Assembly: GCA_963693305.1 (NCBI GenBank)
Contig: OY855909.1
Coordinates: 5,134,241-5,198,240 of the forward strand
Reading direction: 5' to 3'
DNA length: 64,000 nucleotides
Source: Meandrina meandrites
Lineage: Eukaryota; Cnidaria; Anthozoa; Scleractinia; Meandrinidae
This document shows, one piece after another, positions 1,069 through 62,840 of the stretch (its first letter is position 1; each line of letters opens with the position of its first letter). The notes below the pieces were generated by a model that saw only the letters and a program-made list of their open reading frames with translations, searched no databases and had not been told where the DNA came from. A program made the translations under genes and the position numbers.

Positions 1069-1308
1069 ATGCATTCCATAACGGTGCCTTCCATTCAAGA
1101 TTTGGTGTGTGTTATGTTACTCTTTGTGATCCTGTGTTACGTGATCAGAATGCACAGAGCTCTTATGAATTGGGAACCGAGAGTGGATCATCAACAACCT
1201 GTAAGAGCCAGGAGACGAAACTACCGGAGGGGACTAAACGCAGAGAGAAACCATTACAATCATCGTGACAATCGCTATCCAACAGAACACGACGAACGGT
1301 ATGGTTGA
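1069..1308 (+). CDS. Small single-pass membrane peptide, family A (79 aa)
   Basis: Function unknown; I do not recognise the family. The 79-residue product has a short N-terminus (MHSITVPSIQD), a hydrophobic helix at about residues 11-27, and a strongly basic tail rich in R, N, H and Y that ends HDERYG. The positive-inside rule predicts N-out/C-in topology. The stop codon lies 4 nt before a likely donor (GTGGGT at 1313), and a matching acceptor (cttgcag) precedes 1525, so an intron follows in the 3' UTR. This is supported as a real gene by paralogues at 5450 (identical protein), 22257, 36513 and, more distant, 62601, in which the frame, helix and C-terminal D-E-R survive while DNA differs. No enzyme motif is visible. 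Confidence 0.7.
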   Translation: MHSITVPSIQDLVCVMLLFVILCYVIRMHRALMNWEPRVDHQQPVRARRRNYRRGLNAERNHYNHRDNRYPTEHDERYG

Positions 1309-2340
1309 ACAAGTGGGTATGAAGTTTTATTTTTCTAATTGAATGGCGCACATTTATTAAGCCTTTCATTTTTTTTTGTTTTACCTGTTTTCTTGTGGAG
1401 CGGGGCCGCCGGGATGCCACAGTGCCAACTTGACGTTAAATACGTCAAAATATATTTTATATTTCTGTCCTTCTTTTAATACCAGCCAGATTCTGAGACT
1501 TTTTCTACTATTTTTCTCTTGCAGGACGAAGAAAAGGATGTTCTGAGAGTAGAGTAGAGAACACTGGATTTTGCGGGAATTTAGCATCGCAGACTCACCG
1601 ATCCAACAGATGACAGCAGCGAGAGCCGATAGTTGTTGGACTGGCGATAGATGATCACTAAACATAGAATGCTGTACAAATTTTGCTACTTTACTGAATT
1701 GATGTTGACTACCCCGAATGCCGATTTATTATTAAGCTAATATTGACATTTCCGCAGATTACCACTTCCTGTGAGCTGCTTGCCACTGACTACACGTTAG
1801 AATAAGGCCTTCTCTTGATGTACCACTTTATTTTGCTTTCACCAGTTTTTATAATTGACAATTTCCATAAATAACACAGCTAATTAAACTGGTATTGATT
1901 AAAATTAAAAATTTCCGCATTTTGAAACCTTGTGAGTTGTTGATTTGTTGAAAACTGAAATGCTCTGATGGTATAAATTACACGTGAAGGGTTGCATAAA
2001 CAATTAGGGTCATAGTCGTTAAACATTGTTTGACATCAGGCTTTCTAATAACGTTTAAAACTTAAGAAAGTTTGAAAATGGATGCCACATGCGACTTATT
2101 CAGATCTCGGCTTTCGCCATGCACTTACAGAAGAAATATTTTTGTTCAGTTAAGGCCAAACAAATAGGTTTCTCCACGGACACGTTATCGAAGGCGCTTT
2201 CAGAGTATTTCTCTGTCCACATATACACAGAAAGATTTTAGTGATCATTTAATGTTAGTGTAAATCGTTTCTTGACTAGGAATACTCAAAAGCTTGATTT
2301 CTCAGAGCTCTTTTGAATGCTGTAACGGTTGGATACACTG
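1309..2340. other. 3' UTR intron, 3' exon and downstream non-coding block
   Basis: It holds the 3' intron (1313 to about 1524) and a 3' exon beginning GACGAAGAAAAGG at 1525, both conserved in every family A copy. A downstream block (about 1960-2330, with the phrase GACTTATTCAGATCTCGGC) recurs near 8150, 23335 and 37740. I see no coding frame. The block marks how far the ancestral duplication unit extends past each peptide gene. Confidence 0.55.
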
Positions 2341-2344
2341 GAAA

Positions 2345-2850
2345 ATTTGAACCATTTACAGACTTCATATAATGTCTGTAAATCCATAATTTATAGACTT
2401 CGTTTTTTCCCTTTAAAAACAAAATGTTAGTAAATTTATTTTACAGACATTTTATACAATTTTCCGATCTTATGTTTTTTAGAATGTCAATAAAATGTTT
2501 GTAAATTCAAGCAGCCATGTTAAGAGGTAAAGACTTAAAATTTACAGACTTCACAAAATCTCACAAGAATGTTTGTTATCTTCCGACCATTTACATAGCC
2601 AGCGTAGCGTAGGAGAGAAAGAACGCGTTCTTTCTCTGCTTCTGCTCCCCGCCGTCGCTTTGCTCGCGCGCTTGTTTTCTCGCTCTCCCTGACTGACTAG
2701 AACGCCAAGCTACGCTCAGTGTACGCTGGCTACCATGCATTTACAAAGATTTTATGACTAAGGATAGGTAACAAAATCTTTGTAAATTTACCAAAGCGGA
2801 ACATTATAAAATCTCCATAGCAAGACATCCCAAATCTCAATTCAATTCAG
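2345..2850. repeat. TTTACAGAC-rich repeat with nested insertion
   Basis: Variants of TTTACAGAC and its reverse complement GTCTGTAAA recur on both strands through this stretch, giving many small inverted repeats. It looks like an old inverted-repeat element that was later split by the MITE at 2596-2737. No coding frame. Confidence 0.45.
2596..2737. mobile_element. MITE with 8-bp target duplication (hAT-like)
   Basis: The ends are inverted: TAGCCAGCGTAGCGT at the left and ACGCTGGCTACCATG at the right. CATTTACA flanks both sides (2588-2595 and 2738-2745), an 8-bp target site duplication as in hAT elements. The left end seems to have lost about 5 bp of the terminal repeat. The interior has no ORF, so it would depend on a transposase elsewhere. 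Confidence 0.7.
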
Positions 2851-2949
2851 TAAGACATTTTAAAGTCCCTGATAATTGAGTGAAGCAGAGCAATGACAGA
2901 ATGGTAAAGTAACCTGAATACCCAAATTCCTCCGCCGTCGAGCATATAA

Positions 2950-3781
2950 ATGAATGTTGAAGGTCTGCCTGGCCGGCTTGATGCATTGTGCTATATTTCT
3001 TTTTTTCGAGAACTGGATGGGATGTATGTTTCTGTTAAGGTAAAATTAAATAGCTCCTTTCATCATTGGCAAAGCACACCAGAAGTTATATTGAGCGTCA
3101 TCAGACGTGGTTACAAAATCCCGTTTATTTTTACGCCGCCATCTCAGCATTACTCGAACAATGCGTCAGCTATTAATGAAGCAGAATTTGTTGGCGAGGC
3201 TATCCTGGAACTTTTGCTCGCCAATCGTGTCGAAGAATTATTTTCTCCACCTGATATCGTCGATCCGTTGAGTGTTTCAGTTCAAAGTAGTGGCAAGAAG
3301 AGGCTTATTTTGGATTCAAGGCACAGCAATTTGCATGTCTACAAACAGAAATTTAAGCGTGAAGGTTTGCATACCATTAAGAGCGCCTTTGCGAAAGACT
3401 ATTTTGTTTTTTCCTTTGATTTACAATTAAAGTCAGGATACCATCATGTGGACATATTACCTGATCACCGGAAATATTTAGCGTTCTCGTGGGATTTTGC
3501 TTGTAGCCATACAAGGTATTTCCAGTTTATTGTTTTGCCTTTTGGCCTTTCTAGCGCGTCTTATATTTTCACTAAGTTGTTAAAGCCTTTGGAAACGTAT
3601 TGGAGAGCGCAAGTCATTCCAATCGCCATTTTCTTTGATGATGGTGGTTGACGCGCACACGCTTTCGCGCGACCAGAATTCGCAGGCTGACTTCCTCAGC
3701 AGGATTGTTGATTTCGAAGATTATTCGCTACATGATGAAGACGTGTTTATAGTTTTTGAATTAATCGAGTGTATCAAGTAA
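2950..3781 (+). pseudogene. DIRS-type retrotransposon remnant (RT fused to RNase H end)
   Basis: The first part (2950-3651) reads as reverse transcriptase: a K-R-L-I-L-D block, Y-H-H-V-D, LPFGLSSA and a final FFDDGG that matches the catalytic Y/F-x-DD box. Directly after it, shifted by one frame (3650-3781), comes RDQNSQADFLSR, which resembles the C-terminal end of the RNase H domain in DIRS/Ngaro elements. Everything between has been deleted, so the copy cannot be active. The family call rests on the LPFGLSSA and N-x-Q-A-D-x-L-S-R style motifs. It lies exactly at the left edge of the duplicated unit, and the window start repeats its last codons. Confidence 0.75.
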
Positions 3782-4132
3782 TCGGTCATTATGGAACCAA
3801 TAAATGTTTCTTGTGAACACTATGGGACGACTGAATAACACATCAATGTTGTCGCACACTAGTCTGCTTGTAGAAAAAAAACCTAATCTTGCGTAATAAA
3901 TGTATCTTTTTGAACAAGCGGTATTTTCACAGCTTTTATGAAGTATAATTGCTTTACTCAGTTTTTAGAATCGACTATGTTTCTGTAAATTACAACTAAT
4001 AAAACTACATGGCATTGATTAAAATTAAACATTTCTGCATTTTCAGTTTCAGCCTTTGTGAATTGTTGAAAAATATTTTGATCGCTATTGAAGCGGTGCC
4101 GTGTTGTACCTAGTAATGTGTATTCCAAAACG

Positions 4133-4216
4133 ATGAAGCCCATTCAAGATTTAGCGTGTGTGATTTTGCTGTTTGTGGTCCTCTATTACATGATGAAAAT
4201 ATACAAAGCTGTTTAG
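4133..4216 (+). pseudogene. Short 27-codon member of the small peptide family
   Basis: The frame encodes only the family head and membrane helix (MKPIQDLACV..., ending KIYKAV) and then stops, so the arginine-rich tail is absent. It is the sister of the truncated copy at 362. As in that copy, the ancestral start codon is GTG and the usable ATG is internal. It may be dead, or it may be a minimal helix-only peptide. Confidence 0.5.
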
Positions 4217-4814
4217 AACTTGACATGCCCTCAGGCGTACTTGGCTAGCTTAGTTCCACAACAAAGATGCTTTCAAATGTTCTTCAAAGTTTGACAATTA
4301 TGCAAATTAACGTAGACATGTTTGTAGTTATTGGGTGTCTTTCGATGTGTCTTTTGATGATATTGTACTTATTCAATTGAATGTTTTTCGTCTCGCGTAC
4401 ACGTTTGAAAAAAAACACAAACACACAACACAAGGCTCTTATTTCTGCGGTGGTCTTAATTACTTATAATAACTGTTTAACTTGCTCGCCAGGTACAGCC
4501 CAGTTGATTCAGTTGCCGCGAAGCTTCAATTTGGCGCACTATTATAAGAAAATTCCTAATAATTTTAAGCTCCAAACAAGTTCAGAACTAATTTAAGAAC
4601 TTTGTTTTTTTAACTTACATTACTTACATTAATTTTTCATTCCAGACAGCAGGTATGGCACGGTTTTTGGGAACCACGCAATGGAAATGTTAAACTTTAA
4701 TTAAATTACTGAGACATGTTTAAATAATTCATAAAGTTAAAATAGGATTTAATGTAGAAATGCACACATTTTAGGTATCCTACTGATGAACGGTTACAAC
4801 AATTAGATATTTAC
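4205..4814. other. 610-bp segment present only in the right copy
   Basis: It includes a diverged repeat of the block at 436-700 (around 4340-4640). Unequal recombination between those two internal blocks would explain its absence from copy 1. A reverse-orientation relative of its first half lies near 28610-28800. No gene seen. Confidence 0.5.
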
Positions 4815-5449: not shown

Positions 5450-5689
5450 ATGCATTCCATAACGGTGCCTTCCATTCAAGATTTGGTGTGTGTTATGTTA
5501 CTCTTTGTGATCCTGTGTTACGTGATCAGAATGCACAGAGCTCTTATGAATTGGGAACCGAGAGTGGATCATCAACAACCTGTAAGAGCCAGGAGACGAA
5601 ACTACCGGAGGGGACTAAACGCAGAGAGAAACCATTACAATCATCGTGACAATCGCTATCCAACAGAACACGACGAACGGTATGGTTGA
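5450..5689 (+). CDS. Small single-pass membrane peptide, family A (79 aa)
   Basis: The protein is identical to that of 1069-1308: a short SIQD head, one hydrophobic helix at about residues 11-27 and an R/N/H/Y-rich tail ending in HDERYG. The ATG is the one shared with the paralogues at 22257 and 36513. A donor follows the stop by 4 nt and the acceptor of the 3' exon precedes 5905. From codon 30 onward this gene forms the first unit of the 834-bp tandem array, so its tail and 3' exon are present three times in succession. Function unknown. Confidence 0.68.
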   Translation: MHSITVPSIQDLVCVMLLFVILCYVIRMHRALMNWEPRVDHQQPVRARRRNYRRGLNAERNHYNHRDNRYPTEHDERYG

Positions 5690-8010
5690 ACAAGTGGGTA
5701 TGAAGTTTTATTTTTCTAATTGAATGGCGCACATTTATTAAGCCTTTCATTTTTTTTTGTTTTACCTGTTTTCTTGTGGAGCGGGGCCGCCGGGATGCCA
5801 CAGTGCCAACTTGACGTTAAATACGTCAAAATATATTTTATATTTCTGTCCTTCTTTTAATACCAGCCAGATTCTGAGACTTTTTCTACTATTTTTCTCC
5901 TGTAGGACAAAGAAAAGGATGTTCTGAGAGTAGAGTAGAGAACACTGGATTTTGCGGGAATTTAGCATCGCAGACTCACCGATCCAACAGATGACAGCAG
6001 CGAGAGCCGATAGTTGTTGGACTGGCGATAGATGATCACTAAACATAGAATGCTGTACAAATTTTGCTACTTTACTGAATTGATGTTGACTACCCCGAAT
6101 GCCGATTTATTATTAAGCTAATATTGACATTTCCGCAGATTACCACTTCCTGTGAGCTGCTTGCCACTGACTACACGTTAGAATAAGGCCTTCTCTTGAT
6201 GTACCACTTTATTTTGCTTTCACCAGTTTTTATAATTGACCATTTCCATAAATAACACAGCTAATTAAACTGGTATTGATTAAAATTAAAAATTTCCGCA
6301 TTTTGAAACCTTGTCAGTTGTTGAAAAATACTCTGATGGTAATTATGCAGCGCCACCCTGCATAATCTCTTGAGCTCTTATGAATTGGGAACCGAGAGTG
6401 GATCATCAACAACCTGTAAGAGCCAGGAGACGAAACTACCGGAGGGGACTAAACGCAGAGAGAAACCATTACAATCATCGTGACAATCGCTATCCAACAG
6501 AACACGACGAACGGTATGGTTGAACAAGTGGGTATGAAGTTTTATTTTTCTAATTGAATGGCGCACATTTATTAAGCCTTTCATTTTTTTTTGTTTTACC
6601 TGTTTTCTTGTGGAGCGGGGCCGCCGGGATGCCACAGTGCCAACTTGACGTTAAATACGTCAAAATATATTTTATATTTCTGTCCTTCTTTTAATACCAG
6701 CCAGATTCTGAGACTTTTTCTACTATTTTTCTCTTGCAGGACGAAGAAAAGGATGTTCTGAGAGTAGAGTAGAGAACACTGGATTTTGCGGGAATTTAGC
6801 ATCGCAGACTCACCGATCCAACAGATGACAGCAGCGAGAGCCAATAGTTGTTGGACTGGCGATAGATGATCACTAAACATAGAATGCTGTACAAATTTTG
6901 CTACTTTACTGAATTGATGTTGACTACCCCGAATGCCGATTTATTATTAAGCTAATATTGACATTTCCGCAGATTACCACTTCCTGTGAGCTGCTTGCCA
7001 CTGACTACACGTTAGAATAAGGCCTTCTCTTGATGTACCACTTTATTTTGCTTTCACCAGTTTTTATAATTGACCATTTCCATAAATAACACAGCTAATT
7101 AAACTGGTATTGATTAAAATTAAAAATTTCCGCATTTTGAAACCTTGTCAGTTGTTGAAAAATACTCTGATGGTAATTATGCAGCGCCACCCTGCATAAT
7201 CTCTTGAGCTCTTATGAATTGGGAACCGAGAGTGGATCATCAACAACCTGTAAGAGCCAGGAGACGAAACTACCGGAGGGGACTAAACGCAGAGAGAAAC
7301 CATTACAATCATCGTGACAATCGCTATCCAACAGAACACGACGAACGGTATGGTTGAACAAGTGGGTATGAAGTTTTATTTTTCTAATTGAATGGCGCAC
7401 ATTTATTAAGCCTTTCATTTTTTTTTGTTTTACCTGTTTTCTTGTGGAGCGGGGCCGCCGGGATGCCACAGTGCCAACTTGACGTTAAATACGTCAAAAT
7501 ATATTTTATATTTCTGTCCTTCTTTTAATACCAGCCAGATTCTGAGACTTTTTCTACTATTTTTCTCCTGCAGGACAAAGAAAAGGATGTTCTGAGAGTA
7601 GAGTAGAGAACACTGGATTTTGCGGGAATTTAGCATCGCAGACTCACCGATCCAACAGATGACAGCAGCGAGAGCCGATAGTTGTTGGACTGGCGATAGA
7701 TGATCACTAAACATAGAATGCTGTACAAATTTTGCTACTTTACTGAATTGATGTTGACTACCCCGAATGCCGATTTATTATTAAGCTAATATTGACATTT
7801 CCGCAGATTACCACTTCCTGTGAGCTGCTTACCACTGACTACACGTTAGAATAAGGCCTTCTCTTGATGTACCACTTTATTTTGCTTTCACCAGTTTTTA
7901 TAATTGACCATTTCCATAAATAACACAGCTAATTAAACTGGTATTGATTAAAATTAAAAATTTCCGCATTTTGAAACCTTGTCAGTTGTTGAAAAATACT
8001 CTGATGGTCA
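5538..8010 (+). repeat. Three tandem 834-bp units carrying the peptide tail and 3' exon
   Basis: Units start at GAGCTCTTATG at 5538, 6372 and 7206. Each holds about the last 50 codons of the family A peptide, the stop, the 3' intron, the 3' exon and downstream sequence. Only unit 1 is attached to a start codon and membrane helix; units 2 and 3 are headless. Units differ by a handful of bases; unit 2 matches the 1.5-kb copy at the acceptor (CTTGCAGGACGAAG), unlike units 1 and 3. Unequal crossing-over is the simplest origin. Confidence 0.85.
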
Positions 8011-8039
8011 TTATATATGCATCGCGCGTTGCATAAACA

Positions 8040-8790: not shown

Positions 8791-9239
8791 TGGATTTTGA
8801 GTCAACACCTTCATTTGAAGAAAAGAGTAGAACAGAATAAGCTGCGAAAGCAGTGGAGCGTGCAAGCAAATACAAAAAATAGCTGTTGAAAACACTTGAC
8901 GTGTGGACTTCTTTGTTTTAGAAATCACTTTCAATTTGCATGACTCCCGGAATGTATTTTTACTTTCCTTTGTTTAATTACGGCACCGTTCGTTGAATTA
9001 AAGTAGCCTGCAGAACAGGCTGTCTAGCGGCGCAGGGCAAAGAACAAAAACACCAGCGGGAAGCTTGAGACGAAAAATGAAACGTTATTACTTTTTATTC
9101 GTAGTGCATCCCATTCCGCTCTCTGTTCTGCGGGTTAAATGATGAACTATACAGCTGAGAAAATAAAACAGAATTTGGGACTCTAACATCGACTTTTCGT
9201 TCTCCGCCTGAGGATGGAAGAATAGGCGGTTTCTTATGA

Positions 9240-9313
9240 GTCTCTCTGTAGCTCAGCGGATCGGGCGCCCGCCAGATGGATGGGAGGTCATTGTTTCGAT
9301 TCCCGTTGGGGTC
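9240..9313 (+). repeat. tRNA-derived SINE head
   Basis: An A-box (TAGCTCAGCGG) and, about 45 bases on, a near-consensus B-box (GTTTCGATTCC) are followed by CCGTTGGGG. These are the internal RNA polymerase III promoter elements of a tRNA. The cloverleaf arms are imperfect and no convincing anticodon stem forms, so I read it as a SINE or tRNA pseudogene rather than a working tRNA. A sister copy lies at 47814-47888. Confidence 0.55.
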
Positions 9314-9782
9314 TTCGATTTTTTCTTTCCCCAACGCTTGTCACAAAATGAACATGAAATCTTTCTCTAGATGATTATAGACTGATGAACTCAGAAAGCA
9401 GTCGCTTTACTATTTCAGGTCAGATGCTGTGTCGCCAAACAGTGTTCGAGAGTCGCGAAAGCAGTAGCAGTTTGATATAAGCGATTTTGTGGTGATGTTT
9501 ACTATCTTAGAGGCCGAGAAGTGCTTTATATGAGTTATGCGATTTGCTGAAACATCAAGCGTTATCCTACTGCCTCTAGACTCTCCTGCCCCAGATGACG
9601 ACTTGACCATCATGTAACGAGAATGTTTATTGTAAAAGGCCTGCAAGAACGCATCAGCTTTGATTAGTTTTTTTAGTCCCTTGCGCGCATGGTTATCAAG
9701 CTGACTCTGTTACATCCAACAAATGAAAGTTTGGAAATTCAAACCGAAGATCCAGTTTGTCGAGGTTCCCGCCAAAAAACTT

Positions 9783-9886
9783 ACTTCCGGGTTAGCTTCC
9801 GGGTTCCGGGTACTTCCGTCATTTTCAATCACGACACCTCGGCAGACCCTGGGAACAAATTTGACAAACAAAATGCAAAATGGCGG
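9783..9886 (+). promoter_or_regulatory. TATA-less WDR25 promoter with ETS and YY1-like motifs
   Basis: Within 160 bp upstream of the WDR25 start there are ETS-type motifs (ACTTCCGG at 9783, CTTCCGG nearby, ACTTCCG at 9812) and a YY1-type motif (CAAAATGGCGG, 9876-9886). No TATA box is seen. This arrangement is common in animal housekeeping promoters. The same sites are kept in copy 2. Confidence 0.5.
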
Positions 9887-9942
9887 ATTGATCACCAAGG
9901 CTTTACATTTATTTGCTGATATTTTAACGACCCAAGCGAGGT

Positions 9943-12900
9943 ATGAAGAGTTTGTGTGCGTACGATAGCAGTTCATCTTCTGACGACGAGTCAGAGTCAC
10001 CGAAAAACAAGAAACGAAAGGCAACAGAAACTGATCGGACAAACAGTGTTCGAGAAGCAAGAAACATCGGACTTCAGCCAGAGGATACAATGGTTAAACG
10101 TCATGCCGAACCTTCAAATGCTAGTGGATTACTTGAAAGAAAAGCCTCTGAATCAAAACAAAATACAACTTGCAGTCCTTTGAATCTCTCGGATCGCTTA
10201 CAGTCGCGAGTTGTTAACCAGACTAACCAGCCGACTAACCACAACAAAAATACTCCAGCTTTCACCGGATCAGTGGCACGAAGAACGCAGTCAAATTCGA
10301 GTTTTCCAGGGTCGAGTGTTAAACCTTACGTGTCAAAGAGAGAAAGAGAGAGATTGACTCAAACAATTGCAGCAACCTCGGAATCAACTCTTACAACAAA
10401 TTATCAGTTAGAAAAGATTCACTCTGATGGCTCATTGAAAGAGGTTAAACATAACTCTGAACAAACAACTGAAATTTCAACCAGAAAGACTGCAGATCTT
10501 GTGTGCAAACCACCTAAACAACTGCAGCTAAATCTTGAAGGACATTCACAGGGAGTCAACTGCGTCAGATGGAATCCAGCAGAGAGCAGTTTGCTGTTGT
10601 CTGCATCAATGGATCACGTGGTCAGTGTTTGGGACACACACAAAGGTGGGGCTTGTACTCAAAGATTAACATGTCATACTGAAGCTGTTAAAGATGCTAA
10701 GTGGAGTCTATGTGGATCACAAGTGTTGAGTTGTGGCTATGACAAAACTGCGAGACTTTTTAGTTTGGAAACGGGTAATAACATATTACAGCAGGGTAAC
10801 AAGGGTGGGTGAGGGGTACATGTTGGTAAATAGAAACAACAAGACAGACAGAGAGACAGACGTACACTTTAATTTAATTATGTGGCTCAGAGAAAACCTT
10901 TTAGAGGCTTAAAAGCAACCTACTATCAACAGGAGCGCTGAGCAGTAAAACACTTCCTAAAAACTCTAAAATAGTCTGTATTTTTTCACAAGATACTAAT
11001 ACATGGAAAAACAGTAGGTGTGATGCTAGCTGTCAGCCTTTAGGGCAAAGGGCTAGAGCTACATACATTTTGGGACAATGCTCTTTACTCACCAAACCTA
11101 CACTAATATATCAACTATTTTCAGTCTAGGGAGGTGCAAATGCAAGGGAAGATCTAGAGGGAGGGTGCAGGGAGTGTGCATCCCCCCCCCCCCCACCCTG
11201 AGATAACCTACAGCTTTCTAATACAACTGGTATTCTGCAAAAAAAACCCTATGTGCAACCCCTCCTAAGAAAAATTCTGGATCTGCCCCTGAAACACAGC
11301 ATTGATTTAACCCTCCTTAATTTACTCATCTGATAAAACATATCACATATCAAAGTTTAACAAAAACAAAACAATCATGTCTAATGTTTAATGTAATGAA
11401 ACATAATAACTCTCTTTCCTTAGAGCACTTAACTCACCCAAAGGAATATCCTCATTGCAAGATTTTTTGGTCCACCAACACACCAACATTGCAAATTTCA
11501 TGTAAATTACTCCTCTCCTTCACAAGTGAGGAGAACGTACTGCTTTTGTGACAAAATCTGCAAATGGTTAAACATTCTAGTCTTCTTGGATAAGGACAAT
11601 AAACTGTTGGCCACATCTCCTGCATCTTCAGTGTTGTACATGGTCAGCTGGGGATGTTAAAGAACCCACACACTTACTGCAAAGAGTAGGGCACGAAGTT
11701 CCTGGTGTTGTGGTCTGGCCTTGTTTCATAGGTTGGTGCTTCCTGACCTCACTGTGCCTTCCCCCTTGGACAGAATTGTCCAAGAAAAATTGCTATGATT
11801 AATGACTATTGTAGTTCAATTTTATACTTAAGTCCAAAGAGGTTGAATTCTAAAAGGATTTTTTCAGGTCACACAGCTGAGTAACAATGTCCCCTCAATT
11901 CATCAATTAGATGAACTATCGAACTTGGTGATCAGAAGTTTTAACATGGAGGTTGAAGATATTATTCTCCTGTGATATTTTTAATTTTTCTATTTAAGGT
12001 GTAAGGTGAAGACCATTTTAAATGGCAATTCAAGTAGAGTTTAAAAACTCAACTCGACCTTGATTTTTATGAGACATATTGCCAATAAAAATCACTAGCT
12101 TGCTTTTTGTTTTTGTTTTACAACAGGTCAGGAAATCAGAGTGTTTCCGCACAAAAACTATGTGACCTGTGTTCAGTTTCATCCCACAGAGCCTGCTCTG
12201 TTTTTAGCTGGGACGTTTAAATCTGCCATCCTATGCTGGGACACAAGAACTGGAAACGTTAGTATGACAACAGGTGCACTGTAATGGCTTTCAAGCCATT
12301 TGTGACAAAAAGCTCAAAAAAGATATTTTCTCAAAATTTGGTTTGTTTCTTTGTGGCTCACAAGTATTAGGCTTACTTTGTGTTTTTTGTCTGTTATTTA
12401 GTGCTGTGCAGGATTTTTGTTTTTGCAAAACAAGCAAACTGGATCAAAACCCACCAATTCAATGTGGAGGGGGACAGGGAGGTCTGAACCTCCCACCTCC
12501 CGTACCTTTTACTCCTGCCTCCCACCCCTTTCTGTAGCCGTAACAAAAAATCTCTCCTGTTTGTCTTCCGAAATATATTGAAATGTTGTGCAACTTTACT
12601 CGTTTTCTCCCAGTTCCCGCCACCTTAAGAATCCCACTTCCCGCCCTCTCTCCTCCTGCTTCCCGGCCCTTTTCTCCCGGGCTCCCACCCCCCTGTCCCC
12701 CTCCACACCAATCACAACCCAGAGAAATGACCTTTTGAACCCACTAAACTTCTAACTTAACTTCTTTATTTTATGAGACATCCGTTAACATGATTGATGG
12801 CAGCAGAAGCAAAATAAGTTAGTTCAGATCTGTTAGCCACAGACAGCTTGTCATTTCACCGCTCACTGATCAGTGTCTTTTTAATATCATTTCAATAGAA

Positions 12901-22126: not shown

Positions 22127-22136
22127 GGGAAACCCC
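22127..22136 (+). promoter_or_regulatory. kB-like site upstream of peptide gene
   Basis: GGGAAACCCC fits the Rel/NF-kB consensus GGGRNNYYCC exactly. It is followed by GTCTATAATTATCTCC and an ATTGG box, 130 bp before the peptide ATG at 22257. The same block recurs at 36360 and 61378. Confidence 0.45.
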
Positions 22137-22256
22137 GTCTATAATTATCTCCGATTCCAATTGGTTCTGTTTGTCTTATATAGTCGTTGAAGGTGCGCAG
22201 TATACGTTCAGAACAGATAATCATCGTACCCTTGCTGAATCTATTCAACCAGGAGT

Positions 22257-22484
22257 ATGCATTCTAAAACGGTGCCCTCCATTCAAGATTTATCGTGTGT
22301 TATGTCTCTGTTTGTGATCATGTGTTACGTGATCAAGATGTACAGAGCTCTAATTTATTTTGAGCTGAGGGTGGATCATCAACAAAATGAAGTCAGGAGG
22401 CGGAACGACCAGATGAGAATAAATTTGAGAAACCCGCGCAATCACAATCGCTATCCGACGGAAAACGACGAACGGCAAGGCTGA
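22257..22484 (+). CDS. Small single-pass membrane peptide, family A (75 aa)
   Basis: This diverged paralogue of the peptides at 1069 and 36513 keeps MHS-x-T-x-PSIQDL, the hydrophobic helix (to CYVIKMYRAL), DHQQ and the ending NRYPTENDERQG. It is 4 residues shorter, the missing residues falling in the arginine-rich stretch. The stop is 4 nt before a GTGGGT donor; the 3' exon begins after ttttccag near 22683. A kB-like motif and CCAAT-type box lie 100-130 bp upstream. Because the frame survives alongside many base changes, it is probably under selection. Function unknown. Confidence 0.68.
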   Translation: MHSKTVPSIQDLSCVMSLFVIMCYVIKMYRALIYFELRVDHQQNEVRRRNDQMRINLRNPRNHNRYPTENDERQG

Positions 22485-22489
22485 ACAAG

Positions 22490-23640
22490 TGGGTATGACT
22501 TTTTTCTTGGCTAGTTTTCTTGTTTTAGTTATTTTATCAAACTTCGCGTTTTTTATTTGACCTGTTGTCCTGTGAGGCAGGCCTCCAGAATCTCACAGAG
22601 TCTTATAAGACTGACAAAGTCGAAATATTTTCCATTATGTTTGTCCAGAAAGATTCTAAGACTTTTCCTATTATATTTTCCAGGACAAAGAAACGAGTGC
22701 TCACTGGATACACAAATCAAAGCGTAGTTTATTAGCTTTGAGAGGAGAGAAGATAACTTTTTTTCTGGCGGATTCACTGGATTTTGCGAGAATTAAGCAC
22801 CGATCCAACAGCAGATAGATATATGTGTAAACTAAATGTTGATAGATGCTAAAAACAAAAAACTCTACGGACCCCAACTGTGTCCCTTTATGATAAAACG
22901 AAGCAACGGGTCTGTTTCACGAACAGCGGTATTTCATAATTTTACTTTATAGTAAAATAAAGCATATATCACAGGATTCGTGTCATTTGCCTAATAAAAA
23001 TACCAAATGACCGATATTAAAATTAAACACAATTTTTGCGTAAGTTGTTTAAAAATACACAAATATCATTACCGGTAATAATTACCGGTAGATGTGAACC
23101 GTTGCATAACTAATTGTCGATCTACCGTGTCGTGGTCTGCTATCATGACTACTTTAATATTCTCCTTTGTGGCCGTTTTGGAATGGTTTCTTTAGAGACA
23201 GAGTTTCGTGTCTTTCGTGACAACCCATAAAACGGCTGAGAAAAAGACTACCTTTGACTGAATCTCATTTCTTCAGTGCGACACACGAAGGCTAATAACT
23301 CAAGAAAGTCTTAAAATGGATGTCAAATGCAACATATTCAGATCTCGACTTCCGCCATGCACTCATTAAAATTACTTTTGTTACATTTAAGGTGCTTTCG
23401 GAGTATTTCTCTGTGCACACAAATGCCAAAAGGGGTTTTATTTGAAATCCTGATATCCATATATCTGCCTCTGCGTTGGTTGCTTAGGAGATTTTTCTTC
23501 ACTGGAAACTTGTCTTAATGTACCAGTGAATCTCGAGTTTCTCGGCCGGGGCGTAGGGGCATTAGGCTTTGTGTGGTTAAGTAAACAGCGCAATTTGCCA
23601 AGCTTCGTGATTCTTTTGTTTTACCCGTTTACCCAGTTAT
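22490..23640. other. 3' intron, 3' exon and shared downstream sequence of the 22.26-kb gene
   Basis: The 3' intron (about 22492-22682) and exon match those near 61680-61960. Further on lies the GATCTCGACTTCCGCC block also found near 2105, 8160 and 37755. A poly-G element begins near 23640. No gene seen. Confidence 0.5.
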
Positions 23641-33347: not shown

Positions 33348-33579
33348 ATGCTGTCCATTCAAGAATTTTCCAGCCTGGCGTGTGCTGTTTTACTGATGGT
33401 GATCCTGGGCTTTGTGATCAAAATAAACAAAAGTTTGCTGAGTAGAGATGCAAGATTGCCGGAGCCAATCTGTAGAAGCGAGAAGGCGAAGTGTGCTGAG
33501 AAACGAAGAGAACTACAAGTACAATTACAGCTTCCCGTGTAATTGCCGCCAGGCCAGAGAACACGATGAGCGCCAATAG
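33348..33579 (+). pseudogene. Family B membrane peptide gene with frameshift
   Basis: The gene is the sister of the intact copy at 62601. It starts MLSIQEFSSLACAV and keeps the membrane helix, but near 33465 it has lost 8 bases relative to the sister (GAGCCAATCTG against a 19-base stretch). The reading frame then shifts and stops at 33542. The ancestral tail remains readable in another frame to AREHDERQ and a TAG at 33579, followed 4 nt later by a GTAAGT donor. A 3' exon follows ttttcag at 33898. The membrane part could still be made. Confidence 0.65.
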
Positions 33580-33897
33580 TTTAGTAAGTGTCTGAAAGCG
33601 TTTTTCTAAATTTTGTACCAGTTTAATTTAGTTTTAAACAAATATGACGGGCGCATTTGTTTTCATTGTTTTGTTTTGTGCTCTGACTGCGTATGAGCGG
33701 GCATTTGCATCCTAAACCAGACAACTGCGAAATTAAATACATCAGAATAGACCCATTTCATTTTATTTTCATTTTTATTTTATGCCGTTCAAGATGCCTA
33801 ATTAAATTCTTGCTGTTGTGCTTCGCACGGTATTCTATACTTCTCCTGATCTCTATACTTGTCAAGATCTCAAAATTTTTTTATTTTTTATTTTCAG

Positions 33898-36359: not shown

Positions 36360-36369
36360 GGGAAACCCC
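36360..36369 (+). promoter_or_regulatory. kB-like site upstream of peptide gene
   Basis: GGGAAACCCC is followed by GTCCATAATTATCTCC and TGATTGGCTCC (an inverted CCAAT box), 144 bp before the ATG at 36513. It matches the 22.1 and 61.4 kb blocks. Confidence 0.45.
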
Positions 36370-36512
36370 GTCCATAATTATCTCCCATTCTGATTGGCTC
36401 CTTTTGCTTTCATCGATTTCATGTACGTGTGCCATTAGTGCTGTCGCTGGTGGGCGCTATACGTTCCGAGCAGAGCTAATCATATACTTGCTGAATCTAT
36501 TCTGCCAGGAGT

Positions 36513-36752
36513 ATGCATTCCATAACGATGCCTTCCATTCAAGATTTGGTGTGTGTTATGTTACTCTTTGTGATCCTGTATTACGTGATCAAAATGTACA
36601 GAGCTGTAATGAATTGGGAACCGAGAGTGGATCATCAACAACCTGTAAGAGCCAGGGGGCGAAACTACCGGAGGGAAATAAACGCAGAGAGAAACCATTA
36701 CAATCACCGTGACAATCACTATCCAACAGAACACGACGAACGGTGTGGTTGA
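36513..36752 (+). CDS. Small single-pass membrane peptide, family A (79 aa)
   Basis: Same length as the 1069 gene, with about nine substitutions, including T6M, C18Y and R21K in and around the helix and Y78C near the C-terminus. The SIQDLVCVMLLFVIL helix, WEPRVDHQQPVRAR and YPTEHDER are unchanged. The stop lies 4 nt before a GTGAGT donor, and the 3' exon starts at 36968 after cgtgcag. The upstream kB-like and CCAAT blocks are retained, so this is the best candidate for an expressed ancestral copy. Function unknown. Confidence 0.7.
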   Translation: MHSITMPSIQDLVCVMLLFVILYYVIKMYRAVMNWEPRVDHQQPVRARGRNYRREINAERNHYNHRDNHYPTEHDERCG

Positions 36753-37139
36753 ACAAGTGAGTATGAAGTTTTAATTTTCTAATTGAATGGCGCACATTTA
36801 TTAAGCCTCTCATTATTTTTTGTTTTATCTGTTTTCTTGTGAAGTGGGCGGCCGGGATGTCACAGTGCCCAACGTCAAAAACGTCGAACTATATTTTATA
36901 TTTTTGTCCTTCTTTTTAACTAGCAGCCAGATTTTGAGACTTTTTTATTATTTTTTTTTTCGTGCAGGACAAAGAAAAGGGTGCTCTGAGAGGAGAGCAG
37001 AGAACACTGGATTTTGCGGAAATTTAGCATCGCAGACTCACCGATCCAACAGATGACAGCAGCGAGAGCCGCTAGTTGTTGGACTGGCGATAGACTAAAC
37101 ATAGAATGCTGTACAAATTTTGCTAGACTACCACTAATG

Positions 37140-47813: not shown

Positions 47814-47888
47814 GTCTCTCTGTAGCTCAGCGGATCGGGCGCCTGCCAGATGGATGGGAGGTCATTGTTTCGATTCCCGTTGGGGACT
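47814..47888 (+). repeat. tRNA-derived SINE head, copy 2
   Basis: Same A-box (TAGCTCAGCGG) and B-box (GTTTCGATTCC) as at 9240, with GGGGAC at the end, which pairs better with the 5' GTCTC. Not a convincing working tRNA. Confidence 0.55.
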
Positions 47889-48353
47889 TCTTTGCCCCAC
47901 ACTTGTGACAAGATGAACATTAAATCTTTCTCTAGATGATTATAGACTGATGAACTCAGAAAGCAGTCGCTTTACTATTTCAGGTCAGATGCTGTGTCGC
48001 GAAACAATGTTCGAGAGTCGCGAAAGCAGCAGCAGTTTGATATAAGCGATTTTATGGTGATGTTTACTATCTTAGGGGCCGAGAAGTGTTTTATATGATC
48101 TGAGTTATGAGATTTGTTGAAACATCCAGGCGTTATCCGACCGCCTCAAGACTCTCCTGCCCCAGATGACGACTTGACCATCATGAAACGAGAATGTTTA
48201 TTGCCTCCTGCAGCTATGACCAACAAAGCTTGATTATTTTTTTTTTGTCCCTTGCGCGCACGGTTGTCAAGCTGACTCTGTTATATCCAACAAATGAAAT
48301 TTCGGAAATTCAAACCGAGGATCCAGTTTGTTGAGGTTCTCGTCAAAAAACTT

Positions 48354-48462
48354 ACTTCCGGGTTAGCTTCCGGGTTCCGGGTACTTCCGCCATTTTGAGT
48401 CACGACACCTTGCCTTGGGAGACCCTGGGAACAAATTTGACAAACAAAATGCAAAATGGCGG
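48354..48462 (+). promoter_or_regulatory. WDR25 copy 2 promoter
   Basis: The ETS motifs of copy 1 are kept (ACTTCCGG at 48354, ACTTCCG at 48383), as is the YY1-type CAAAATGGCGG (48452-48462). A base change makes a second, inverted YY1-type site here (CCGCCATTTTG), where copy 1 reads CCGTCATTTTC. Confidence 0.5.
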
Positions 48463-48520
48463 ATTGATCACCAAATCGCTTTACATTTATTTGCTGATAT
48501 TTTAACGACCCAAGCGAGGT

Positions 48521-51500: not shown

Positions 51501-54500
51501 ACAGGTTGCATCAACTTACTCATCATTTTTTGGCCAAGTTCAGGACATAGCTTTTCTTCCCGGGGGAGAGGAATTTATTTCTGCTGCCGAGGTAGTGAGA
51601 CGGAATTCTACAGACAAAGGGATCATGGTCTGGGATTTTAGATCCACCGCAATATTATCAAATCAAATTTACCAGGTAAGATGGTGTTAAGATTGCAGGC
51701 TGTTACAAAGAGGATGGAGGAAAAGCTAGGTTGACATGATGTGTAAACAGAGAGATTTTGTAATAATAATGACTGTATTTCTCTTGGTAGACAAGTAATA
51801 TGCCCAGATAACATAGTCTTTTATTTTACCTTTTCTTGAAATGAAATGGCAGATCATCTTGGGGTGTATAGGAGGGTGGGGGTGGAGAGAAACCAGGGAG
51901 GAATCTGAATTTCCCACTTTACATACTCATTACTCCCAGTTCCTGCTACTTCTTAAGTTAGTGCTTGCTGCCTATTGGTGCTTTTCCCTTACAATATTGC
52001 AACAGTTTACACTATCTCTCCTGTGCTCCAGTCCCACTTTGGAAATCCCAGTTGCAGCCCTGGACCCTAGAGGGGGGGGGGGGGGGGGGTACTTGGGATT
52101 TCAAGTGACGGAAATGATTTAAGGATTTTTTTTTTGGGGGGGGGGGGGGGGTTGAAATTTTCAATTTCAGTGATTTTTTTGGTGGCTTAATTTAAAAAGG
52201 GATTTTTTGGGTATAAAAAACAATCTAAAGATTTGTGGTAGTGCCTTGGCTGCATAGTAGTAATGATTTTATACGTGTTATATTATTCCCCCCTGTCTAG
52301 AAATTAAAGGATCAGAAATTCAGCATGGGATTTTTGGGGGGTTGAGTTTTGGTCCAGCAATTTTTTGGGGTGTTGTTGGAAGCCCTTGGGATTTTTGGGT
52401 CTTGATCCCCCCCCCCTCCCATTTGATCATCTTGTCTCTTGAAATCCCGAGTACCCCCCTGGGCCCTGATACTTCTAGTCTTTATTTATCTGTTAATTTA
52501 TTCTACCATTACTTTTTAGTATAATCTATATTTTTCCTGTTACCATTTTTTCTTGATAATGGTGCCATTATGACACCAAGAGGATGTTCCATCTTTTTGC
52601 ATATTTTTATAGGATTGTTATGTAGTTCTGTTATTTTTTTTTCTCCTTGTCAGGAAGCCTTTACCTGTACTTGCTTGAAGGTTCACCCAACTGAATCACA
52701 TTTTATAGCACAGTCAAATGGAGACTACATTGCTTTGTTCTCGACAAGAAAACCTTACAAGCTGAACAAGTTCAAGGGATATGAGGGTCACAAGGTAATG
52801 ACGCCAATAATTTCAGGTTTTAATGTTACAGTTTTATAGCAAGGAAGTCACATGTGAACACTTTCACATTCCTTGTGCAGTCCAAGTTACAAGGAGCTCA
52901 AAGGTTCCGAAACTGTGAGATCCAGGGTGCCCATCATAAAGCTTACAGGAAAGAAATAAGACTATCTGGTCACCCAAAAGCAAAAGGTAGTCGCCTGAGG
53001 CACCCGGGCACCCTTAGAGCACAGCCCTGCAGTCATTATCGAAGCAGAAGGACCAAAAGCCTGTGGAGAGCTTGCAGTTGACTTCTGATTGGATTAAATC
53101 TGCACATGAAAAATTATATCTTTTGGGAGTCAAAAAAAGGTTGAACTATGCCCAAGTTGGTCTTCTTCAGGGGTTTAATTCATATTTTCCGACACCGCGA
53201 GCATTACTGTCCCTTTTTATATCCCTCTCCCCCAACCAGATGAAAATTCACTTAGACTCATGAAAATTTGAACCGGTTTAAAATTCAATGAGACCTACAG
53301 TGCAATAATTGAGAGTTGGTGGTTTAGCAAGAGTAAAAGTTTTAATAGTAACACAACAAAAATGTGAGTCAATCAATTGTCACTTTGACGCAACTTTAAA
53401 AGCGACTGGACAACTGTAAAAAATGCAACCAAACTTTATTCAGCGCTTCAAGCTGCGACCATTTTGGTCGCCATGGCGAGTGGAAATAAAATTTGGCGAC
53501 TAAATTTTCCACACAGGTCGCCAATTTCGCGACCAGGCTACGCATCAACATTTTTTTTTGCAGTTCAATCACTAAGCCAAACAAATTTGACCACAAAACG
53601 TTTCATTACAACTATTTCAATCGCCTATCTTACTTATCTGTGTGAGTTAAAGATACCTCATTGCTCAGACTCCTAATTGTGTTTTGATCCCTTCGGTCAT
53701 CTATAAAGTTTGCAAACCACATTTCTTTCCATTGTTTTAGTGTACTGTACAAGAATTTAACTTGTTTTGCATGTTTATCTTCCTTACCTGTTTCTTTAAT
53801 CTTTTATTTACTTTTCTGCATGATAATTGGAACAGTTCAACAAAAAAACTCTTCAACGGAAACGAAAATAACTACGTTGGAACGTTCTTCGAACGAGTTT
53901 AATTCGGCTCATAATGGTCAGCGGTATTACTTCATGTAAGGCAACATAAGGTGTCCTGCTTTAAAAACGCCTTGATTTTTGGCGACCAAAATTTTTCTAG
54001 CGGCGACCATTTTACAAAAGAAAGTCGCCAAAAGGCGACTTCTGAAAAACTTGAGCTTGAAGCACTGTTTAATAACAAATTAAATCATAATTTTACAATC
54101 GAAGACATCCAACATTGTTATCAAGAAAGTTCAAAATACAGGTTTAAAATTTAATTAACCTAACCCTAACTCTCTTGATCAAATTTTTGAATTATATAGA
54201 CTGGGCACTTGCAGTTTGATCAATTAAAAAATACCCAACATTTTCGCTCCCCCCCCCCCCCCTTGGGTAGGAGACCAATCTAGGCATGGCTCCACCTTTT
54301 TTGACCTCTTTTTTTCTCTGAAAAATACTTTTTTTTTTTGCAAAAGTAAAAAAAGCCTAGTAACTAAATTGTTTGCAGACATGAATGAAGTTGAATGCAG
54401 GAAGATGCTATTTGTTTGCACAGATGGCACAGAAAAAAAGTGTTTGTCATGGAAACGTTTTCATTCCCCCTTCTCCTCCAAGAAATACTGGTCCGCCCCT

Positions 54501-55151: not shown

Positions 55152-56545
55152 TTTATAGTGCGCAAATTTCATAAAATGTTCAAATGCGCATTACAAAACG
55201 GAATAAAAACGCTAAAAGTTAAAATTACAATTAAAGGTAAACTTACAATGAATTTAAAGAGCTAAAATTACATTAAAATAAAATAATGATTGGAAAAAAA
55301 TAATGATTGCAAAATAATAATGATTGGAATAGGATTATTAGTGCTTTTCGATTCCTCTAGGAAACGCCATTTCAATTCAGTTGTAGGTTAAATGTATTAT
55401 ATAAGCAGACCTTCTTAAGTATTGACCCTACAAGGAAATCGCGAAAAACGAACTGAAAACGTAAAATTTATTGTTGCAAATTGTTGCCGCGAAAGTTAAG
55501 TTACTAAAGTTTGTTGAGGAAATGTTGGGTGTCTTTAGTGGCACTATTTAATGTAAAGTTTTAAATTTCATATCACAGTGTCAATCAAGGTTACAAATTT
55601 TCTCTCCACTTACTTTCGAGATATTCAGCATAAAATTCAGCAACAACTTCAGTAGCGTAATTCAACGCATTGATAAACGGCCTTCCAGTCCATGTGGCTC
55701 CATCCCAGATCCACTCGGCCATCCATACAACTCCTTCCCATGTCCACTCGGCCATCCATACAACTCCTTCCCAAGTCCACTCGGCCAACCGTTTGGCTCC
55801 GTCCCAGGTCCACTCCGTCATTCGTTCAACTTCGCCCCAAATCCTCTCGGCCATCCATAGACCGCCATTCCAAACCCACTCAGTCAGCCATGTAACTCCG
55901 TTCCTTGTTTTGTCAACCATTGTCACGGTGAGATCATAACATTTGTTCCAAACCCGTTTCGTCATTGTCACTGAAAAGTCCCATGCCCGTGTTGTGAAGC
56001 CAGGGAGCCTGGGCTCGGATGTTTCGTAGGCGGGACATGTTGCATCATGGGGAAACTGAACCTGGCAAATAATGAGTCAGTTGTTTGCTGTTTTCTGGCA
56101 AAAAGCTACAAACCAACTTGTAACTGACCATGACAAAATTACAACAAGTTGCCTAACCTTGCGAGAAATTAAAAGAAACATGAGTTTTTGATATTAAATA
56201 CCTCTTCGTGTTTGGGTGTCCTGTTACGTCTGGGTATGCTGTGGACATGTGCCAAGTCTTTGTTCTCAGTGAGTTCGATAACCAGTTTAATGTCCAGCTT
56301 GATGGAGTTAAATCGCATCTTAACTATATAATCCTGTAACAAGAAGTAATTACATTTAGAAAGTTGACTCTTGGGTTCTTTTTCTTTTCTTCTTCGCGCT
56401 CGTAGTCTTAATGCTTTAAAAGATCCACCACAAAAAACAGCAGTCAGAAATATACAATTTTAGATATTTGTAAAAATGAAAGAAGAATAGTTTCTTCTCT
56501 CACGAGAAGTGGGCTATCGGCTATCAGCGATTAGTATCACCCAAC

Positions 56546-56583
<38 letters not shown>

Positions 56584-61190: not shown

Positions 61191-61377
61191 CCGCGTCGCG
61201 AAGTTTGGAACAAGCTTACAAACCAAAAATGGTTAGCGACGGCCCTGGTCATAAAACACTTGAGTACCTATATATATGTTCACCGGACACTTGAGTAGCA
61301 GCAAATGTAGCGTGCTAGTGCTTTGGGCATCTACACTGAATATCATCCGTACCAAAAGCATCAGCAGCACGGATTGG

Positions 61378-61387
61378 GGGAAACCCC
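61378..61387 (+). promoter_or_regulatory. kB-like site of a peptide gene relic
   Basis: GGGAAACCCC followed by GTTTATAATTACC, as at 22127 and 36360. Downstream sequence no longer leads to a coding exon, so this promoter is probably orphaned. Confidence 0.4.
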
Positions 61388-62030
61388 GTTTATAATTACC
61401 TGTATCCCCGGCCTTGGCTCAAAACGTGTTACCAGGCTTTCAAATCAATGATGTTGCTCGACCAAGCGCTTCTGGGCTAAAAAAATGAATTGTCACCTCC
61501 TGTTTCAAGCAAAAATGACGCGTAAACAACACTTGTTACCATGGAAACGGCAAAGAATTTTTCATTGAGGTCTGAAAAATCGCTTAAAATGAATAATGGG
61601 AAATGAATACTGCACAAAATTTAGTTTCTGGGGCAAGTATAATGCATAAGGCTTTCAAAAAACCAGGTTACAAAATATTGAGTTTTTCACGATTTTTTTC
61701 CAGTTTCTTTCGAACTTGACCTGTCGACCTGTGAGACATGCGAGTGACTAAGTCCAAATATTTTCTACAATTTTTGTCCACGCAGCCAGATTCTGAGACT
61801 TTTCCTATTGTTTTTCCCGTGCAGGACGAAGAAAAGAGTGCTCTATGGATACTCAAAGCAAAGCGTAGTTTATTAGTTCTTAGAAGAGAGAAAAGAACAT
61901 TGTATTCTGGCGGATTCACTGGATTTCGCGGGAATTTTTGTTAATTTTGCACCGATCCAACAGCTAATAGCAAATAGATGTGTAGACTAAATGTTGATAG
62001 ATGCTGTTCCTTAAATTCAAAACTCTACGG
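61378..62030 (+). pseudogene. Family A peptide gene relic without coding exon
   Basis: The promoter-like block is present at 61378, and the 3' intron plus exon (acceptor cgtgcag before 61823, then GACGAAGAAAAGAG) are present to about 62030. The coding exon between them is missing, replaced by unrelated sequence at 61410-61670. It is the copy 2 counterpart of the intact gene at 22257. Confidence 0.6.
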
Positions 62031-62600
62031 GACGGACCCCAACAGTGGCGATCAGTGTTTTGGAACGATTGAGATAATGTTGGCCACTTACTCGTCAGAA
62101 TAAAAATGCCTTCTATTGCATAATTGATGTGCCCCTGGGTTACGTTATGAGATCTTATGACACGACGAAGGAACGGAACTCTTTCACAAACAAGCCGTAT
62201 TTTATACTTTATAGTTTTTATGAAGCATATATTATAGGATGCATGTGAGTTGTAATCGGCACTCTTCCAAAGATAGCGTAACGTAACCAATCAAAGGGAA
62301 AATAAACAATAGAGAACGGAAGTTTTAGAAATGACGATATATATAACTCCGTAAACAATGGTAAAGTTAAATTCCACAAAGTCAGTCACAAGCGAAATCG
62401 GCACTCTTCCATATAATAATATATTGTAACGTAAACAATCACCGCTAAGATATAAAGATAAACTGCGACGTGTCATACATAAAGACCATAAACTGGTTTG
62501 TTATGCATGATTCATCGCATTGCGCTCTCGGTCGTCACATACGCCTGTGCTGAGAACTTCTTTTACTGAGCTCATACAGAAGTGCGCATTTCGGGAAATC

Positions 62601-62840
62601 ATGCTGTCCATTCAAGAATTTTCCAGCTTGGCGTGTGCTGTTTTTTTGATGTTGATTCTGGGCTTCATGATCAAAATGAAAAGAGGTTTAATGAATAGAG
62701 ATGCAAGAATGCCGGAAAACCTCGGCCAACCTGTAGAAGCGAGAAGGCGAAGTGTGGTGAGAAACGAAGAGAACTACAAGTACAATTACAGCGTCCCGTG
62801 TAATCGCAAGAAGGCCAGAGAACACGATGAGCGCCGATAG
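62601..62840 (+). CDS. Small single-pass membrane peptide, family B (79 aa)
   Basis: This is the distant paralogue of the family A peptides. It starts MLSIQEFSSLACAV, has a hydrophobic helix at about residues 8-24 (to GFMIKM), then R-G-L-M-N, Q-P-V-E-A-R-R-R and an N/Y/K-rich tail ending KAREHDERR. Length is the same as family A (79 aa) although the alignment starts five codons later. The TAG stop is 4 nt before a perfect GTAAGT donor at 62845, and a 3' exon follows ttttcag at 63229. The sister at 33348 is frameshifted, so this is the only intact B copy in the window. Function unknown. Confidence 0.68.
   Translation: MLSIQEFSSLACAVFLMLILGFMIKMKRGLMNRDARMPENLGQPVEARRRSVVRNEENYKYNYSVPCNRKKAREHDERR

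What the first reader, a model, noticed from the sequence alone, without database searches (positions are those of the whole stretch)
1069..62840. Undescribed multi-copy family of about 79-aa membrane peptides
Intact copies at 1069, 5450, 22257, 36513 and 62601, broken ones at 362, 4133 and 33348, and a gene relic at 61378 share one plan: SIQ-D/E head, one helix, R-rich tail and a terminal D-E-R. The A and B types differ widely in DNA yet keep length, helix, Q-P-V-x-A-R-R-R and E-H-D-E-R. Conservation of this kind in such short genes points to selection on a real peptide, perhaps a membrane-protein regulator or a defence effector. The function is my speculation.
Basis: partly seen in the sequence, partly recalled or inferred. 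Interest (0 to 1): 0.8.

Follow-up and report, generated by a model that had tools for sequence, protein, structure and literature searches.

The report
New small membrane-protein gene family
A duplicated stretch of DNA carries several copies of a small, unnamed gene whose product looks like a one-helix membrane peptide with an almost unchanging four-letter motif near its end; the family is real and has relatives elsewhere, but its job is unknown.

Summary
The copies are real. The "relic at 61378" is a promoter-like block with a 3' exon; no coding part was found between them. A profile search found 41 similar proteins, 39 not on the window's contig, none with a precomputed Pfam domain. In 42 of 43 aligned rows the tail carries [PA]-x-E-[HNQ]-D-[ED]; 42 of 43 have a strongly hydrophobic stretch. 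The predicted gene plan is shared by A and B types: whole frame in exon 1, a GT donor 4 nt after the stop codon, an intron of 195-383 nt, a 3' UTR exon. Two A genes and the relic share GGGAAACCCC (kappa-B-like). Older copies show selection (dN/dS 0.31-0.54, by alignment); recent pairs do not (about 0.86). Best reading: a membrane-anchored docking peptide showing a C-terminal motif to the cytosol, in a fast birth-and-death cluster. An immune role is only a lead. Kind: single-pass membrane microproteins, new family.

The parts
1069..1308 (+). A-type frame, 79 aa, intact; similarity to A36513 ends about 43 nt upstream of the ATG
5450..5689 (+). A-type frame, protein identical to 1069 (repeat at 4381 nt offset)
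36513..36752 (+). A-type frame, 79 aa, intact, with promoter-like block
22257..22484 (+). A'-type frame, 75 aa, intact, with promoter-like block; indels against 1069 are whole codons (3, 3, 6 nt)
62601..62840 (+). B-type frame, 79 aa, intact
33348..33579 (+). B-type copy, frameshifted: lacks 8 nt of B62601
347..439 (+). C-type 5' fragment (head and helix only)
4118..4219 (+). C-type 5' fragment (head and helix, then a stop)
6374..6520 (+). A-type tail piece (49 codons) in the 834-nt tandem unit
7208..7354 (+). A-type tail piece (49 codons) in the 834-nt tandem unit
36360..36387 (+). promoter-like block of A36513: GGGAAACCCC at -153, ATAATTA at -139
22127..22154 (+). promoter-like block of A22257: GGGAAACCCC at -130, ATAATTA at -116
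61378..61405 (+). the same block in a relic without a coding part
61716..62047 (+). 3' part of that relic (acceptor and 3' exon, exon start about 61825)
1313..1524 (+). predicted intron of A1069, 212 nt, donor 4 nt after stop
36757..36967 (+). predicted intron of A36513, 211 nt, GTGAGTATG donor, T-rich tract and CAG acceptor
22489..22683 (+). predicted intron of A22257, 195 nt
62845..63227 (+). predicted intron of B62601, 383 nt, GTAAGTATG donor
33584..33897 (+). predicted intron of B33348, 314 nt

Best explanation
A family of compact genes, each encoding a single-pass membrane microprotein. Exon 1 holds the 5' UTR and the whole frame; an intron starts 4 nt after the stop codon and exon 2 is 3' UTR. 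The protein has a short head, one helix of about 20-26 residues with Lys/Arg at its inner end, a disordered tail that tolerates insertions and deletions, and a nearly fixed motif [PA]-[TR]-E-H-D-E near the C-terminus. Most likely mechanism (inferred): it inserts N-out/C-in and acts as a membrane-bound docking peptide; helix and basic residues hold it at the membrane and the C-terminal motif recruits one cytosolic partner. Some A-type genes may be inducible through the kappa-B-like element. Copies arise by tandem duplication and die often. Shown by sequence: family, frame, motif. Predicted from sequence: gene plan, helix. Inferred: topology, docking, inducibility.
For: 41 similar proteins at E 9.4e-42 to 1.2e-4. 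42 of 43 rows of A2 carry [PA]-x-E-[HNQ]-D-[ED]; the exception is P0026, the frameshifted window copy. On 32 rows (A3) the EHDE columns average 4.11 bits, the helix 2.83, the mid-tail 2.13. Best 19-residue hydropathy above 1.6 in 42 of 43 rows; the C-side is the more positive in 25, equal in 16, less in 2. AlphaFold2: one helix, 9-34, mean pLDDT 93 and 92 for residues 11-20 and 21-30, residues 41-70 below 50 on average. GT donor 4 nt after the stop in 6 of 6 loci read; pyrimidine-rich CAG acceptor at the expected distance measured for 5 of 6. dN/dS of A against A': 0.31 and 0.39 (MAFFT), 0.39 and 0.54 (tblastn-guided). With the same substitutions placed at random, 12-13% of 50,000 sequences stayed open, and only 29 of 5948 and 70 of 6558 of those had as few amino-acid changes; the first alignment gave 0 of 20,000 in each case.
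Against: No transcript, ribosome or protein data. Recent pairs show no constraint: A1069/A36513 dN/dS 0.86, with 23441 of 29938 open simulations having as few changes; B pair dN 0.111, dS 0.130. Two of the seven proteins on the 310,132-nt contig have a shifted stretch (P0009, P0011) and one has lost the motif (P0008), judged by eye. P0008, left out of A2, would make the motif count 42 of 44. The kappa-B-like 10-mer is missing at A1069/A5450 and within 1 kb upstream of both B copies. No partner is known; topology rests on charge alone.
Confidence: 0.45

Rival explanations
1. The exon is the last coding exon (helix and cytosolic tail) of a larger multi-exon receptor, not a whole gene.
For: CAG acceptor-like sites lie 4 nt before the ATG in A36513 and A22257 and 21 nt before it in B62601 and B33348; the B frame is open upstream of the ATG. 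8 of the 39 database rows in A2 have longer N-terminal frames.
Against: The A copies have an in-frame stop 7 codons before the ATG; A1069 and A5450 lack the CAG. Two A genes and the relic have the promoter-like block; in the two genes it lies 130-153 nt before the ATG, which leaves little room for an intron. 31 of those 39 rows begin at or near the same Met, though how those starts were chosen is not known.
Confidence: 0.12
2. SERCA/regulin-like or channel-subunit-like regulator: the helix itself binds a membrane pump, channel or receptor in the plane of the membrane.
For: Size and one-helix plan are those of known membrane micropeptides (recalled; PMC8396278 seen in the listing only). Helix positions L20 and K25 are nearly invariant.
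Against: No phospholamban- or sarcolipin-named chain among PDB sequence matches at E up to 10. The strongest conservation is near the tail end, not in the helix.
Confidence: 0.2
3. Non-coding or mobile DNA: the frames are passengers in a repeat family without a protein product.
For: Tandem duplication, near-neutral dN/dS between recent copies, several broken copies, a reverse-transcriptase fragment at 2950-3651.
Against: Frame and motif hold in rows of 24-49% identity to A1069; A/A' indels are whole codons; A/A' protein changes are fewer than simulated; intron position is shared by A and B. I made no dedicated search for transposon ends or transposases.
Confidence: 0.06
4. Secreted or membrane-lytic peptide (antimicrobial or venom-like effector) rather than a resident membrane protein.
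For: Basic tail, multi-copy, turnover.
Against: By eye there is no signal-peptide cleavage plan or cysteine pattern (no predictor was run); the most conserved part is an acidic motif near the C-terminus.
Confidence: 0.07

Closest known systems
Single-pass membrane microproteins (SMIM, regulins, NEMEP and the like; recalled, papers seen in the listing only)
   Same: Around 100 residues or fewer, one hydrophobic helix, compact gene.
   Different: No convincing sequence match in Pfam, NCBIfam or PDB; a tandem birth-and-death cluster and a fixed EHDE motif are not features I recall for them.
TRAF6-binding tails, PxExx[acidic/aromatic] (PMC6125299 and PMC9597381, passages read)
   Same: 42 of 43 rows fit [PA]xExx[ED]; PMC6125299 says small hydrophobic residues can replace P; PMC9597381 reports a preference for polar or acidic residues where the conserved D stands.
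   Different: Only 17 of the 42 have the proline. PMC9597381 calls P and E strictly conserved and found large residues, His among them, at the position of our H in 396 of 1,200 non-binders and 4 of 236 binders, while citing an array in which they are tolerated.
Kappa-B sites bound by cnidarian NF-kappaB (PMC5700166, PMC13042239, passages read)
   Same: GGGAAACCCC has the shape of the 10-mers GGGAATTCCC (gel-shift probe) and GGGTTAACCC (modelled target) used there.
   Different: Binding of this sequence was not tested; absent from A1069/A5450 and the B genes.

Membership tests
Protein-coding gene family | Homologous frames in sequences from other contigs | tested here: met
   39 of 41 hits are not on the 176,632-nt contig taken to be the window's
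Protein-coding gene family | Purifying selection on the protein | tested here: inconclusive
   Seen between A and A', not for A1069/A36513 or the B pair
Protein-coding gene family | Transcription and translation | not testable with these tools
   no RNA or protein data held
Single-pass membrane microprotein | One hydrophobic helix, about 100 residues or fewer | tested here: met
Single-pass membrane microprotein | Membrane insertion and topology | not testable with these tools
   charge bias only
SERCA regulins | Sequence similarity to phospholamban/sarcolipin-type chains | tested here: not met
   no such chain among the 5 and 3 PDB sequence matches at E up to 10
TRAF6-binding motif | P two residues before the E | tested here: not met
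   P in 17, A in 25 of the 42 rows with the motif; the window's A types have P, its B type A
TRAF6-binding motif | E, and an acidic or aromatic residue three after it | tested here: met
   42 of 42 rows with the motif, 43 scanned
NF-kappaB target gene | Kappa-B site in the promoter | tested here: inconclusive
   A36513, A22257 and the relic yes; A1069, A5450, B62601, B33348 no; binding not testable
Known anti-phage defence families | Match to a PADLOC model | tested here: not met
   1 of 43 rows, E 0.014, to one ZorB model; taken as chance

The most novel reading that the evidence does not exclude
An NF-kappaB-inducible family of membrane-anchored adaptor peptides that present a TRAF-type motif ([PA]xEHDE) to the cytosol and so feed back on the pathway that induces them, expanding by tandem duplication as a lineage-specific layer of innate immunity.
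Probability: 0.08. Interest if true: 0.75.

Novelty: new member of a known kind. Interest (0 to 1): 0.42.

Why it matters
Small membrane proteins are easily missed by gene annotation. This family gives a clear signature (one helix, then [PA]-[TR]-E-H-D-E near the end, intron 4 nt after the stop) that can be searched for in genomes and transcriptomes, and one fixed motif whose binding partner can be fished out. If the kappa-B element works, it would name a new set of inducible membrane peptides.

Tried and rejected
Viral or prokaryotic origin: 52, 95 and 38 stretches matched the search patterns but none encoded a relative, in viral contigs with alignment A1 and with protein P0022 and in prokaryote genome contigs with A1. 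Known domains: 43 rows against Pfam, NCBIfam and PADLOC gave scattered matches of 1-3 rows each, best E 0.004, taken as chance. Solved structures by sequence: best E 0.12 and 0.47. An ER-retrieval signal (HDEL-like, recalled) was considered and set aside because only 8 of 43 rows end in HDE plus one residue; the others run on or differ. Longer N-terminal frames (P0009, P0011, P0012, P0016, P0026, P0028, P0037, P0038) were taken as upstream read-through, by inference. Further copies: a profile search of the six-frame window found none beyond those listed; the next match had E 0.45.

Literature: five searches. I saw listings only, 20 of 70, 20 of 155, 10 of 2,024, 10 of 12 and 3 of 3 papers, and passages of four papers. 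No listed title named this family; the ten papers listed matched one string only (arehder) and are unrelated by title. That does not show absence from print.

Not done: the second structure model, B type (turned down); a fold search (one helix gives meaningless matches); the whole-genome search (not completed).

Rows dropped: P0002 (the window's own B with an upstream extension) and P0008 (motif lost) are not in A2; P0026 (frameshifted window copy) is in A2 but not in the tree (42 rows); A3 holds 32 rows.
Full report
Observation. ATG frames of 79, 79, 75, 79 and 79 codons begin at 1069, 5450, 22257, 36513 and 62601. A profile search of the six-frame window adds no further copy; the next match has E 0.45. 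A and B types are homologous (37% identity over 79 columns, E 1e-10 in the window). The copies are not independent: 1069 and 5450 lie in 1516 nt repeated at an offset of 4381 nt with 99.4% identity, the tail pieces in an 834-nt tandem unit, and much of 8.8-21.8 kb recurs at 47.3-60.2 kb with 89-97% identity. Whether the near-identical repeats are in the organism or are assembly artefacts cannot be told here.

The 'relic at 61378'. This is not a peptide relic. It is a block GGGAAACCCCGTTTATAATTACCT whose like stands 153 nt before the ATG of A36513 and 130 nt before that of A22257. Downstream, 61716-62047 matches the region after the A22257 frame (77-85%), with a 3' acceptor at about 61825; between 61401 and 61716 blastn found no similarity to the frame. 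So it looks like a gene that kept promoter and 3' exon and lost its coding part.

Family. Single searches found 1 and 8 proteins. An alignment of ten A and B proteins found 41, 39 of them not on the 176,632-nt contig that I take to be the window's; none shows a precomputed Pfam domain and none a name. Seven of the 41 (P0001, P0004, P0006-P0009, P0011) list a longest contig of 310,132 nt, which I take to be one contig of a near relative with a like cluster. Of the 39 database rows in A2, 31 begin at or near the same Met and are 64-100 residues long; 8 have longer N-terminal frames. A tree of 42 rows has supported groups for A/A' (SH-aLRT 98), B (96) and five others (99 each); only 78 columns were available and deeper forks are open. 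A' of the window groups with P0011 (98) and A36513 with P0001 (83), so A and A' probably split before the two contigs did.

Protein plan. AlphaFold2 on alignment A2 gives one helix, residues 9-34, confident in its middle (pLDDT 92-93), with residues 41-70 below 50 on average; pTM is 0.35. Hydropathy above 1.6 is reached by 42 of 43 rows; flanking charge favours a cytosolic C-terminus in 25, is neutral in 16 and opposes it in 2. Conservation peaks near the end: EHDE averages 4.11 bits of a possible 4.32, positions 68-77 average 3.34, the helix 2.83, the mid-tail 2.13 (32 rows). The motif [PA]-x-E-[HNQ]-D-[ED] is in 42 of 43 rows; the exception is the frameshifted window copy. P0008, not aligned, lacks it too.

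Gene plan. After the stop codon the six loci read (A1069, A5450, A36513, A22257, B62601, B33348) have 4 nt and then GT: GTGGGTATG, GTGAGTATG, GTAAGTATG or GTAAGTGTC. Pyrimidine-rich tracts ending in CAG follow, giving introns of 212, 211, 195, 383 and 314 nt for five loci; for A5450 the script caught a later repeat copy, so its 1046 nt is not a measured intron. Exon 2 of A begins GAC[AG]AAGAAA, that of B TATGA[AG]G[AG]AAAGGAAA. A and B differ at 52-67% of synonymous sites, so the shared intron position points to a transcribed, spliced gene. This is prediction from sequence; no RNA was seen. The ATG has A at -3 in the five open copies.

Selection. A1069 against A36513: dS 0.064, dN 0.055, ratio 0.86. 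B62601 against B33348 over 75 gap-free codons: dS 0.130, dN 0.111. So recent duplicates show no constraint. A against A': 0.31 and 0.39 on a protein alignment, 0.39 and 0.54 on the tblastn-guided alignment, which I trust more. A against B: 0.46-0.58, near saturation. When the same substitutions were placed at random, 11.9% and 13.1% of 50,000 sequences stayed open, and of those 29 of 5948 and 70 of 6558 had as few amino-acid changes as seen; A1069/A36513 did not differ from chance (23441 of 29938). The A/A' indels are 3, 3 and 6 nt.

Promoter lead. Matches to GGGRNWYYCC (recalled as the kappa-B pattern) are the 10-mer GGGAAACCCC at 22127, 36360 and 61378 and GGGGTACTCC at 25121 and, on the other strand, 45106. 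A first-order random model expects 0.125 copies of GGGAAACCCC per 64 kb on both strands (40 simulations, maximum 2); for the looser pattern it expects 1.8 on the + strand, maximum 5, where 4 are seen, so the looser count is not remarkable. The three sites are homologous and count as one event plus conservation: 26 of 28 nt agree between A36513 and A22257, 21 of 28 in all three. Passages of PMC5700166 and PMC13042239 use GGGAATTCCC and GGGTTAACCC. The block is absent from A1069/A5450, where the alignment shows only a degenerate look-alike, and no match lies within 1 kb upstream of the B genes, which speaks against it as a family rule.

Motif lead. [PA]xExx[ED] recalls the TRAF6-binding motif. 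PMC6125299 (passages) allows small hydrophobic residues for P; PMC9597381 (passages) calls P and E strictly conserved, favours polar or acidic residues where our D stands, and finds large residues, His among them, where our H stands in 396 of 1,200 non-binders and 4 of 236 binders, though an array it cites tolerates them. The proline is in 17 of 42 rows. I rate this as a lead only.

Known or new. Pfam, NCBIfam and PADLOC gave no convincing family, PDB sequences none, the viral and prokaryotic scans no relative. No title in the literature listings named the family; the listings were capped and the library lacks most subscription journals. Verdict: a real, apparently unnamed family of single-pass membrane microproteins; ordinary in kind, unusual in its fixed C-terminal motif and its turnover. 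The organism was not identified, and the whole genome could not be searched because that machine did not answer in seven tries.

Noticed in passing
window 16380-16721 (-) and 55591-55965 (-): Two duplicates of a tryptophan-rich peptide with 11-residue repeats (WMAEWTWEGVV-like), 113 and 124 aa, one repeat more in the second; Pfam: none for the first, Synuclein at E 0.022, below its cut-off, for the second.
   Followed up: partly
window 8794-14871 and 47336-53438: Two copies of a region with a WD40-repeat gene (first frames at 9943 and 48521), 89-90% identical, part of the 38.5-kb duplication.
   Followed up: partly
window 24385-24860 and 26608-26962: Two arrays of a 16-nt tandem repeat in inverted orientation, about 2 kb apart, 70-92% complementary.
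   Followed up: no
window 5538-8014: An 834-nt unit repeated head to tail with over 99% identity, each carrying the tail of the A gene.
   Followed up: partly
window 2950-3651 (+): Fragment of a reverse transcriptase (Pfam RVT_1, E 7.8e-6, 26.2 bits against a cut-off of 29.6).
   Followed up: no
P0025 and P0027: Frames run on after EHDERQG into K-C, as if read through a GGTAAGTG-like donor (inference; their DNA was not seen); in that subfamily the stop codon may lie in exon 2.
   Followed up: no
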